Of a stretch of DNA of 64,000 nucleotides, positions 43,812-64,000 are shown piece after piece. The notes beneath the pieces are model-generated. The model was given only the letters and a program-made list of their open reading frames with translations, made no database searches and was not told the DNA's origin. This stretch comes from Haematococcus lacustris (lineage: Eukaryota > Chlorophyta > Chlorophyceae > Chlamydomonadales > Haematococcaceae). Numbering within the stretch: the stretch's first letter is position 1; every line of letters begins with the position of its first letter. The stretch spans positions 8,992,520 through 9,056,519 of the forward strand of contig JASKMD010000015.1 in assembly GCA_030144725.1 (NCBI GenBank), given 5' to 3'. The position numbers were made by a program, and so were the translations under genes.

Positions 43812-46800
43812 GTGCCCCTGGCTCCTCTTTCCTCTGTCAATTGTCCGATCCTTATGACCGTTGCCCATCTGTCGGGTGCGAATGAGCACATGGACCCGCG
43901 GCGAATCAGATCCTGGTTCCACTCCGTTCCGTGTCAAATCTGCAGCCTGAATGTCGAGACTCTGGCAGGAGTGCACGTGACACTCCAGCGCCGCTGCGGA
44001 ACATCGGTGATGGACCACAAATCAAACCTCAGCCGTGGCACTTCTAACAGCGTGGCCGACGGCAAAAGCGGATGCGGCGAAGGCGCAGAGAGTCCTCCGC
44101 AAGCGACCACACTTTCAAGTCTGCAAGTCCAAGCTGCCAAAGCAGCTCTTACCGCGCAGCAAATCCACACGACAATGATAACCTTGTTGTAAGGCCGTGT
44201 TGAGCATATGCACCGTTCCAGCTGGAAGCTGTATCTCTATCCTGGGGAGCCCCCACACTTCTCCACAACAGCATATGCACCGTTACAATTCCATGGGGAG
44301 GACAGACCCTGGCCCTCTTTGTTGCACACAGGGGATGCAGCAGCATCTGGATAACGTTTTCAATCATTGACGCACAGTACACACCACGCGACCCCACGTT
44401 CAAGCTGTCCAAGGTAACACCGGCTCTGCCCATGTCGAAGCTCTAGCACTTCAACTGCGCTGGTAGCCTATTGAAAGCATCCGTTCAGCATGTTGAATAA
44501 CCTGACAACCTGCGTGCCAGCCTGCCTGCTGCCTGCTGCCTGCCCACCACCCAACGCCCAGAATCTGATTACTTCTTACCAGTGGTGCATGGTGGGCTAC
44601 ACAAGCAACCTGATCCTCACCCTGCTCAAGTGAGTGTCCGCGAGGGCGTGCAAGCAAGCAAGCAGCCATACAGTCCTGCTGGTGCCACAGTGCTCCACCA
44701 CAGGAGGGGAGGGAGGAGGGGTCCTTCTCGTGTCACAGTGAAAGCGGAAGGGGAACAGGGTGGGCAGGGGGCCCAGTAGGGAGGGGATGGAGCCAGCAGG
44801 GGGAGTTGGTGGCTTGTCAGCTGGCGGCTTGTCAGTGTGTGAAGAGGAGGTCTGAAGAGGGGGTCTGAGGAGGAGTAGAGGGGTGGGGAGGGTGGGTGGG
44901 GAGGATAAGGACCCGGCAGCGCCCTGCCTCCCTCACTGCTGCTCCCTCACTGCTGCCATCACCTCTGCTGGCTGCTGACATACCTACCCTCCCCCCTGTC
45001 TCTTTGACCGCTGTAGCACCACAGCCATGGCAGCTATGGCAGCCCCCTCCCCCCACTGACCCAGCTTTGACCGTCACCCCAGCTGCCCCGCCCAGCTGCA
45101 TGGAGCTGTCTCATGCTGGGGGGCCTGACACCAGCCTGACACCAGCCTGACACCAGCCTGACAGGCAATGCCTGCACCTGCCTCCCTGTGTGAAGCCCAA
45201 GGCAGTTGTCACGGCCCCTGCTGGCCTAAGCAGGAGCTAGACACAGCTTGCCTGACACCCTGTGCCTTAGACCCTGTGCCCTACACCCTGTGCCTTGCAT
45301 TGCACCCCAGTTGCCTACCTCCCTGCTCAGAGCCTCTTGGTTTGAGGCTCTGTCTGCCTGCACCCACCCACCCACCCACCCACCCGCCCTGCTCTCGCCA
45401 TGCCCTGTCCTGTCCTGGGCATAGCTTGCCTCAAACCCCCTGCCCCCACCGCCCCCCTGCAGGGTCATCTTTGAGACAAACCGCACCAAGCTGCACCTGC
45501 ACCTGGTCAGCTGCTACATCAACGTCCTGGCAGCCAGCTCCTATGCAATGCTGTGGACTGGCTTCTCGCCCGTGGTCCCGGATGTGCAGTCATGCCTGTG
45601 AGCAGGGCTGGAGGGGCAGGGCTGGAGGGGCAGGGGTCGCAGGGGCAGGGCCTCAGGGGCAGGGTCTTTAGGGGCATGGGGTGCAGAGGTCGCATGGGCA
45701 GGGGCCTGCACGGCTATGATGGGCAGGGGCAGGGGTGTCACATGCAGGGACGTCTCGATGGCAGTCTCAGCATGACAGTTGCAAACGGGCAGGCGCATGG
45801 CTGTCGGTGTTGGTGGACCCAGGCAGTGGGCCAGGGCAGTAGAGCCAAAGGCATGCTTTGGCACCCCCCAGCAGGTCGCAGGGCCCTGGGCTGGGAGGGC
45901 AGCAGCCAGGGTGTTTGTTGATGTCGACCTCAGCCTTGCTGCCAGCCGCTTCTCCACGCTCAAACACTGACACGGGACATCGACAGGGCTCAGGGCTCAG
46001 GGCTTAGGGCTCAGGGTGTGCAGCGCTGGCGCACACCACATCAACCAGGGTGTCTGTGGTGGTGAACTCCTCGACTTTCAGACATTGCCACAGGAAGAGG
46101 TTCAGTGTGCAGGGCTCAGGGCTCAGGGCACAGGGTGAGGCACTGCGCAGTGAAGGGTGTCAGGTGAGGGATGAGAGGGGTCACAGGGGCTAGTGGCGCC
46201 AGGGCAGCGAGCCAGCATTGCCAGGTCACCATTGGGCACGGGGAGTGAGGGGGGTGGAGGCAGGACGTGTGGGCTGTAGTCAGGGGTGGGCGCTAAAGGG
46301 TGAGGCAGGGGGTGGCAGTGGTGCCAGGGTGAGGGCCCTGCATTGCCAGTACCCCTTTTGCATGGGCCAGATGTCAGGGTAGGGCCTGCTGCCTCATCAG
46401 CTGCCTCATCCACCACCACCTCTCCATGAGGCCTCTCCATGGATTCAAGGGACCCACCCTCCCTCACCCTTCGTCCCTTTCGCTGTGCGGAGAGGCAGCT
46501 TTGGGTAGCATGGGGTAGGTGTAGTCCCTGTTGTTGTGTAACTGTTGTTATGGGCAGCCAGCCCCCCAGCCCACTCCTCCACCCTCACCTTGTCCCTGCT
46601 GCAGCTACGTGCCCCAGCGCTGGATGCTGTACTGCTTCACCGCCCCCGCTATCATCTACATCCTGTGCCAGATCAGCGACTACAGTCCCCGCATGCGGCT
46701 GTGGGTCATTCTGCTCAACGTCTTCATGCTGGCAGCCGGGGGGCTGGGCACGGTGCCCTGGATCAGCTGGCCGCACAAAGGTAGCGTGCTCATCGGTGTT

Positions 46801-64000: not shown

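What the first reader, a model, noticed from the sequence alone, without database searches (positions are those of the whole stretch)
43812..64000. Light-to-cGMP pathway in one polypeptide: a two-component cyclase opsin
Phase-consistent exons join a type-1 rhodopsin with the retinal lysine (K353), a histidine kinase with H, N, G1, F and G2 boxes, a receiver domain with phosphoacceptor D773, and a class III cyclase with the Glu/Cys pair typical of guanylate cyclases. This order is known as two-component cyclase opsin in Chlamydomonas and Volvox, where light controls cGMP production through phosphotransfer. This homologue is large, extends at least 730 residues beyond the receptor-cyclase core, and has changed key residues.
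Basis: partly seen in the sequence, partly recalled or inferred. Interest (0 to 1): 0.85.

Follow-up and report, generated by a model that had tools for sequence, protein, structure and literature searches.

The report
Algal rhodopsin-kinase with half-broken cyclase
A gene that looks like a green alga's joins a light sensor, a phosphate relay and a cGMP-making enzyme domain in one protein, but that enzyme domain has lost two residues normally needed for the reaction, so it probably relies on a partner or signals another way.

Summary
A 30-exon model (43854 to beyond 63999) gives 1753 residues so far without a stop: type-1 opsin (K343), histidine kinase (H397), receiver (D763), class III cyclase; Pfam finds all. 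Relative P0001 aligns without gaps across 25 of 27 exon junctions checked, so the parts belong together.

The architecture is that of 2c-Cyclops, but tree and opsin residues place the gene in a third, COP8-type clade, apart from COP6 (the proven light-inhibited guanylyl cyclase) and COP5/HKR1. Its cyclase keeps both metal aspartates and the Glu/Cys pair but lacks the transition-state NxxxR motif (T997, C1001). In this clade the cyclase diverges about twice as fast as the kinase; on the COP6 side it does not. A homodimer is predicted to make little or no cGMP.

The pattern resembles that of known heterodimer halves: sGC alpha and fungal NeoR. The boldest reading still open is a metal-donor subunit of a heterodimeric algal cyclase opsin. 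A known kind, an unusual member; no activity data.

The parts
43854..63999 (+). whole gene as modelled, 30 exons, ATG at 43854, open at the window end (1753 residues so far)
   Evidence: phases match, 0 stops; P0001 opsin 91% identical; 25 of 27 junctions gapless against P0001
43854..44413 (+). exons 1-2: N-terminal extension and extra transmembrane helix 0 (..[17 protein letters not shown]..)
   Evidence: model; P0001-P0003 have similar DAxYTPRD stretches; hydrophobic stretch 103-124. Exon 1 start and exon 2 acceptor are provisional
44562..47878 (+). exons 3-7: type-1 opsin helices 1-7, residues 137-344
   Evidence: Bac_rhodopsin; best PDB sequence matches are a phosphodiesterase rhodopsin (7d7q 1.1e-09, 7cj3 2.1e-09)
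47873..47875 (+). codon of K343, the retinal-binding lysine by alignment; D339 four residues before it
48066..53566 (+). exons 8-15: signalling helix and histidine kinase (HisKA, HATPase_c)
   Evidence: H, T, N, G1 and G2 residues present
48222..48224 (+). codon of phospho-acceptor H397
53785..54212 (+). exons 16-17: variable linker between kinase and receiver
   Evidence: model in phase; poorly conserved
54692..56641 (+). exons 18-21: response-regulator receiver
   Evidence: Response_reg 1.1e-30
55980..55982 (+). codon of phospho-acceptor D763
56964..59487 (+). exons 22-27: helix plus class III cyclase domain
   Evidence: Guanylate_cyc 2.1e-40; PDB cyclases
57550..57552 (+). metal-binding D881 (LFADLAGF), kept
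58035..58049 (+). base-recognition E922 and metal-binding D926 (VEHCGDEY), kept
58850..58852 (+). base-recognition C990 (KYCVFG), kept
59116..59130 (+). T997 to C1001 (TIANC) in place of the NxxxR transition-state motif
   Evidence: DNA; tables; same letters in P0001
60565..61290 (+). exons 28-29: post-cyclase segment and start of coiled coil
   Evidence: model; by eye GDYAAAL...GDLLMMG resembles GNWEAAL...GELLLMG of P0001
62217..63999 (+). exon 30: coiled coil, then long low-complexity C-terminal region, runs off the window; a SAM domain is expected further on
   Evidence: SAM_1 in P0001, P0008 and P0010

Best explanation
It is a COP8-type histidine-kinase rhodopsin, by its kin of a green alga (Chlamydomonadales, inferred): a probably eight-helix opsin, kinase, receiver, class III cyclase domain and long tail in one protein. 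Most likely mechanism: light on the retinal at K343 alters the helix leading into the kinase and so the autophosphorylation of H397 and transfer to D763; the phosphorylated receiver changes the attached cyclase domain. That domain still has the residues for metal and guanine nucleotide (D881, D926, E922, C990) but lacks the NxxxR motif, so a homodimer makes little or no cGMP. The output therefore goes through something else: a catalytic partner subunit, or a binding partner of the receiver, the cyclase-like domain or the expected SAM domain. Shown: domain order, residues, clade, cyclase diverging faster than the kinase. Inferred: retinal binding, direction of light control, phosphotransfer, lack of homodimer activity, output route.
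For: Gene model and domains. Single protein: P0001 and P0008 hold all these domains in one protein on contigs of 7084 and 5210 bases, too short for a gene with some 30 introns of this size, so most simply transcripts (inference). Clade: 12 rows with support 100/100 in a tree of 33 rows (four long rows left out) and 100 in a tree of 37 rows. Opsin residues match Cop8 (and Cop9-10) at 8 of 8 tabulated positions (L,T,A,I,D,D,S,K) with the same 131-residue spacing, and mismatch Cop5 (M) and Cop6 (Q, N) (window letters). Cyclase: 15 of 18 COP6-side rows have all six catalytic residues (2 more lack letters at three of them, 1 is degenerate), against 0 of 12 on the COP8 side (P0010 has five of five with letters, P0008 five of six, P0011 has no cyclase). 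Median cyclase/kinase divergence ratio 1.95 on the COP8 side (36 pairs), 0.92 on the COP6 side (35 of 36 pairs); single pairs overlap (1.19-6.12 against 0.44-1.68). With 8 rows each 2.26 (95% 1.86-2.73) against 0.91 (0.72-1.09). NeoR, which also lacks NxxxR (T455, K459), is inactive alone (PMC12264004, passages).
Against: The sequence of C. reinhardtii COP8 itself was not in hand, so the name rests on a published residue table and on C. incerta and C. schloesseri relatives. The published COP8 description has an N-terminal potassium channel and cNMP-binding domain (PMC5046144, passages), not found here. Both trees carry a warning that long branches meet between the window's clade and the others. 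Two COP8-side rows (P0008, P0010) keep the Arg, so the loss is not clade-wide. Loss of N and R need not abolish activity fully. In NeoR, putting N and R back did not restore activity, so the motif is not the whole story. Light sensitivity is unproven; the related COP5 is needed for ammonium chemotaxis (PMC11621555, passages).
Confidence: 0.72

Rival explanations
1. Metal-donor half of a heterodimeric cyclase: the domain gives its two aspartates to the active site of a partner that brings Glu, Cys, Asn and Arg (a COP6-type opsin or another guanylyl cyclase), as NeoR does for RGC1. Two photoreceptors would share one active site.
For: Window and P0001 keep D,E,D,C and lose only N and R (2 of the 11 COP8-side rows with a cyclase). 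sGC alpha, among the best PDB matches of this stretch, reads VTLANKFE against VTIANCLE here; AC5 C1 VTLANHME, AC9 C1 VNLANLME. NeoR has T and K at the same two places, is inactive alone and supplies the metal aspartates in the active site. COP6-, COP5- and COP8-type proteins are all listed for Volvox africanus (P0014, P0013, P0002).
Against: The sGC alpha match is no better than that of canonical NxxxR-bearing cyclases: 4ni2_A 56.5 bits, AC5 56.5 over two domains, Chlamydomonas cyclase 3et6_A (NTASRME) 56.4. The domain diverges fast even in rows that keep nucleotide residues (2.58); close kin have gone on to change metal or base residues; no partner is known; the kinase dimer may favour homodimers.
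Confidence: 0.25
2. Plain pseudo-cyclase: the domain is a decaying relic or a scaffold, as in COP5; signalling goes through kinase, receiver and SAM to other proteins.
For: Cyclase diverges about twice as fast as the kinase; C. incerta and C. schloesseri have lost base residues too; the C. eustigma model P0011 has no cyclase at all; kinase and receiver residues tested are intact in the window; COP5, whose cyclase lacks key residues, has a cell function (PMC11621555, passages; PMC8006352, section 5).
Against: In window and P0001 four of six catalytic residues are kept and Pfam still scores the window's domain at 2.1e-40.
Confidence: 0.45
3. Active light-regulated guanylyl cyclase like COP6, with other residues standing in for Asn and Arg.
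For: Metal and guanine-binding residues intact; same architecture as the proven enzyme.
Against: NxxxR lost; 15 of 18 COP6-side rows have all six residues; faster divergence.
Confidence: 0.12
4. Artefact: separate genes, a pseudogene or assembly error joined by eye.
For: Very long repeat-filled introns; no RNA data; splice sites picked by hand.
Against: 0 stops in 1753 codons; 25 of 27 junctions without gap against P0001 and against P0003.
Confidence: 0.03

Closest known systems
COP8 (and COP9-10) of Chlamydomonas reinhardtii and kin P0001-P0010
   Same: Opsin residues at 8 of 8 tabulated positions and their spacing; clade of window and P0001-P0011 with support 100/100; order opsin-kinase-receiver-cyclase, SAM in relatives scanned.
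   Different: No potassium channel or cNMP-binding part found before the opsin, although PMC5046144 describes one for COP8. Cyclase less changed than in C. incerta and C. schloesseri.
COP6 / Cr2c-Cyclop1 / HKR2, light-inhibited guanylyl cyclase
   Same: Same domain order; kinase and receiver residues present.
   Different: Against P0033: opsin 31% and cyclase 36% identical; L and D where COP6 has Q and N; no NxxxR.
COP5 / HKR1, bistable UV/blue rhodopsin without detected cyclase activity
   Same: Same order; cyclase not canonical; C-terminal SAM in the family.
   Different: Opsin 27-31% identical to the three COP5-side rows compared; L in place of M; both metal aspartates kept here, 0 of 7 COP5-side rows keep the first (that region aligns poorly there).
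NeoR of Rhizoclosmatium globosum
   Same: Rhodopsin-linked cyclase domain with D,E,D,C kept and NxxxR changed to TxxxK (here TxxxC).
   Different: Fungal, a rhodopsin guanylyl cyclase without the kinase and receiver; works as a shown heterodimer with RGC1 or RGC2.
Soluble guanylyl cyclase alpha subunit and C1 half of mammalian adenylyl cyclases
   Same: VT[L/I]AN in sGC alpha and AC5 C1 in place of the VNxASR of canonical cyclases.
   Different: No opsin or phosphorelay; animal proteins; AC9 C1 keeps the Asn.

Membership tests
COP8-type histidine-kinase rhodopsin | opsin residues L,T,A,I,D,D,S,K at bacteriorhodopsin positions 85,89,90,96,212,194,204,216 (Table 2B of PMC7693036) | tested here: met
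   L212,T216,A217,I223,D339,D323,S331,K343; also I220 at what I recall as the tuning position, listed as Ile for Cop8-12
COP8-type histidine-kinase rhodopsin | groups with the clade apart from COP5 and COP6 | tested here: met
   C. reinhardtii COP8 itself was not available as a row; long-branch warning in both trees
COP8-type histidine-kinase rhodopsin | N-terminal potassium channel and cNMP-binding domain (as in PMC5046144) | tested here: not met
   the only matches to the channel and cNMP motifs in six frames are GYGE and GYGD at 4126 and 3844 on the - strand, far away; frame 38551-39273 upstream matches RsmB/F methyltransferase; P0002, P0003, P0008 and P0010 have only short stretches before the opsin. 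Motifs split by introns would be missed. The numbering L67/K198 in PMC7693036 leaves no room for it, so I do not treat it as defining
COP8-type histidine-kinase rhodopsin | C-terminal SAM domain | not testable with these tools
   window ends inside exon 30; present in P0001, P0008, P0010
2c-Cyclop (COP6) | opsin-kinase-receiver-cyclase in one protein | tested here: met
2c-Cyclop (COP6) | full catalytic set D,E,D,C,N,R in the cyclase | tested here: not met
   D,E,D,C,T,C
2c-Cyclop (COP6) | clade and opsin residues (Q at 85, N at 212) | tested here: not met
2c-Cyclop (COP6) | light-inhibited, ATP-dependent cGMP production | not testable with these tools
   needs biochemistry
COP5 / HKR1 | M at position 85, clade | tested here: not met
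   L212; other clade. C. reinhardtii COP5 itself was not a row; the clade is named by residues and by the Haematococcus row called chlamyopsin-5
COP5 / HKR1 | bistable UV/blue photochemistry | not testable with these tools
   needs spectroscopy
Type Ib (eight-helix) enzyme rhodopsin | extra helix before the seven | tested here: inconclusive
   hydrophobic stretch 103-124; AlphaFold2 model of relative P0011 shows eight helices (one broken) before the long helix (mean pLDDT 77.3, pTM 0.42); the window protein itself was not modelled
NeoR-like / sGC-alpha-like metal-donor half | metal and base residues kept, NxxxR lost | tested here: met
NeoR-like / sGC-alpha-like metal-donor half | active only with a partner | not testable with these tools
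   needs co-expression

The most novel reading that the evidence does not exclude
Green algae have their own heterodimeric cyclase opsins: COP8-type proteins such as this one act as metal-donor halves for a COP6-type (or other NxxxR-bearing) guanylyl cyclase, so that two photoreceptors with different colours and two phosphorelays gate one active site, arrived at independently of the fungal NeoR system.
Probability: 0.2. Interest if true: 0.75.

Novelty: new member of a known kind. Interest (0 to 1): 0.42.

Why it matters
It shows that the domain order alone does not make a 2c-Cyclop an enzyme: three clades share it, and among the rows examined only the COP6 side generally keeps a canonical cyclase. 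The window gene and P0001 show a state in which nucleotide- and metal-binding residues survive but the transition-state motif is gone, the pattern of known heterodimer halves. That gives the idea that inactive algal cyclase opsins work as heterodimers (floated for COP5 in PMC8006352) a better candidate and a simple complementation test, and gives optogenetics a natural receptor half to try.

Tried and rejected
Filing it as COP6/2c-Cyclop: rejected by residues and tree. Filing it as COP5/HKR1, my first guess after because of the SAM domains: rejected by Table 2B of PMC7693036 and the tree. A potassium channel fused upstream, as published for COP8: looked for by motif and by Pfam in 20 of the 88 open frames of 90 or more residues before 43.9 kb that passed a complexity filter, not found; a domain split over short exons could be missed. 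RNA families and tRNAs: none found in the window. A look for class III catalytic residues in PMC2447327 found no passages. Fold search with the P0011 model showed, in its first 50 rows, histidine kinases or complexes with them (ShkA first) and no rhodopsin, so it says nothing about the opsin. dN/dS could not be done: no DNA of relatives. One search scored only the 7998 candidates sharing most words and listed the best 120 of 7911. The residue table used 36 of these 120; left out are rows that by their Pfam column are bacterial kinases, lack a cyclase or an opsin, or are fragments, so other chlamyopsin types (COP7, COP11-12) may be unrepresented. One search used 9 of 18 COP6-side, 6 of 7 COP5-side and 9 of 12 COP8-side rows; one search used 8 of 18 and 8 of 12; pairs are not independent. 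The third protein search, with the cyclase part of P0001 (15 hits at 1e-20), brought no further COP8-type member. That the half-site state of COP8-type cyclases is not in print rests on searches of the held library only.

Full report
What is in the sequence. Stop-to-stop frames on the + strand from 43.8 kb on carry short conserved blocks. Joined at GT-AG sites with matching phase they give 30 exons from an ATG at 43854 to the window end, 1753 codons, no stop. I picked the sites by hand to be GT-AG and in phase, so that alone is no proof. Pfam finds opsin, HisKA, HATPase_c, receiver and guanylate cyclase in joined fragments, all above the curated cut-offs. Codon positions are 57, 42 and 77% G+C over the core, a codon bias that coding exons of a G+C-rich genome would show.

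Is it one protein? A homolog search with the opsin part gave 9 proteins among 504 candidates. P0001 is 91% identical over the opsin, 89% over the kinase, 92% over the receiver and 82% over the cyclase. Exons 3-15 and 18-27 align to it with no gap inside, and 25 of 27 junctions show none either, nor do 25 of 27 against P0003; the exceptions are the two junctions of linker exon 16. P0001 (1692 residues) and P0008 (1335) sit on contigs of 7084 and 5210 bases, too short for a gene with some 30 introns of this size, so they most simply are transcripts (inference). Separate transcripts for the window gene are thus unlikely, though not excluded without RNA.

Which kind is it? A wider search with an alignment of seven relatives scored 7998 candidates and listed 120, among them C. 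reinhardtii chlamyopsin-6 (P0033). I took 36 of these, nearly all with opsin and cyclase. On a tree of opsin, kinase and receiver columns, cyclase left out, they fall into three groups: COP6 side (18 rows), COP5 side (7 rows) and the window's (12 rows), each with support 100. A careful tree without four long rows agrees (15, 6 and 12 rows; 100/100, 100/99, 100/100). Both trees warn that long branches meet between these groups. Table 2B of PMC7693036 (section read) gives opsin residues: Cop5 has M at position 85, Cop6 has Q and N at 85 and 212, Cop8 and Cop9-10 have L,T,A,I,D,D,S,K. The window has the Cop8 set in 8 of 8 positions with the same spacing. So it is COP8-type.

The cyclase. Six residues matter in class III guanylyl cyclases: two metal Asp, Glu and Cys for guanine, and the NxxxR motif for the transition state (PMC12264004, passages). 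The window has D881, E922, D926, C990, but T997 and C1001. On the COP6 side 15 of 18 rows have all six, 2 have no letters at three of them, 1 (P0067) is degenerate. On the COP5 side 0 of 7 keep the first Asp (poorly aligned there). On the window's side P0010 keeps Asn and Arg (its model lacks the first Asp region), P0008 keeps Arg, the other 9 rows with a cyclase have lost both, and P0011 has no cyclase; only the window and P0001 keep D,E,D,C while lacking N and R. In this clade the cyclase diverges faster than the kinase: median ratio 1.95 (36 pairs, 1.19-6.12) against 0.92 on the COP6 side (35 pairs, 0.44-1.68) and 2.54 on the COP5 side (15 pairs). With 8 rows each and columns resampled it is 2.26 (1.86-2.73) against 0.91 (0.72-1.09), the first larger in 300 of 300; leaving out any one row keeps it at 1.91-2.80; rows that keep most nucleotide residues still give 2.58, which speaks against strong constraint on a working enzyme.

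What the pattern resembles. Around the lost motif the window reads VTIANCLE. The alpha subunit of soluble guanylyl cyclase, among the best PDB matches of that stretch, reads VTLANKFE; the C1 half of adenylyl cyclase 5 reads VTLANHME, that of AC9 VNLANLME. These are halves that work only with a partner half (established knowledge). The overall match is no closer to them than to canonical enzymes: 4ni2_A 56.5 bits, AC5 56.5, and Chlamydomonas cyclase 3et6_A, with NTASRME, 56.4. In the fungal rhodopsin cyclase NeoR the same two places are T455 and K459; NeoR's cyclase is inactive alone, gives its metal aspartates to the active site with RGC1, and the second site of the pair looks regulatory; putting Asn and Arg back did not restore activity (PMC12264004, passages). 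Heterodimers have been suggested for COP5 (PMC8006352, passages) and for inactive algal cyclases in general (PMC7693036, section read). The window protein is a better candidate than COP5 because it keeps the metal residues.

Mechanism. For COP6, dark phosphotransfer from H352 to D1092 keeps the cyclase on, and light turns it down (PMC6284317, section 13 and part of section 4 read). The window protein has every kinase and receiver residue that I tabulated, so the relay probably works. The AlphaFold2 model of a relative, P0011, shows eight helices and then a long helix into the kinase (pTM 0.42), which fits light acting on the kinase through that helix. What the relay controls is open: protein partners without catalysis (0.45), a partner cyclase (0.25), its own weak cyclase (0.12). 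COP8 of C. reinhardtii moves between eyespot and flagella with light (PMC5046144, abstract and passages), so a role in the light responses of motile cells is plausible for this one.

Surroundings. A frame before it matches an RsmB/F RNA methyltransferase (38551-39273), and an open frame that may be that gene's end stops at about 43567. No potassium channel or cNMP-binding part was found upstream, although the 2016 description of COP8 has one. Introns hold very long simple repeats. The genome search did not complete, so other copies and a COP6-type partner in the same genome could not be sought.

Verdict. The half-site cyclase is the interesting part.

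Noticed in passing
38551-39273 + (and 42677-43567 +): Upstream frame matches Pfam RsmB/F RNA methyltransferase (7.7e-12); a lysine-rich frame that may be the end of that gene stops about 290 bases before the opsin ATG.
   Followed up: partly
13069-13500 +: Weak GNAT acetyltransferase match (1.1e-4).
   Followed up: no
4343-6790 +: 816-residue open frame without a Pfam match at 0.01.
   Followed up: no
54794-55794, 51115-51419, 59493-59932, 61754-62159, 50525-50806: Long, nearly perfect simple repeats inside introns: (TGCC)n of 1 kb, (CACCCT)n, (CCCTCA)n, (GCCCCT)n, (CAGCAGCGG)n.
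   Followed up: no
60336-60559: 59-base unit, 3.8 copies at 100% matches, just before exon 28.
   Followed up: no
P0011 (Chlamydomonas eustigma, not in the window): A COP8-side protein that ends after the receiver (709 residues): natural loss of the cyclase, or a cut gene model.
   Followed up: partly
P0067 (unnamed source, not in the window): A COP6-side row whose cyclase has lost five of six catalytic residues: decay may also happen on that side.
   Followed up: no
literature, PMC5046144 against PMC7693036: COP8 is described with an N-terminal potassium channel and cNMP domain in 2016, but numbered L67/K198 in 2020; the two do not look like the same gene model.
   Followed up: partly
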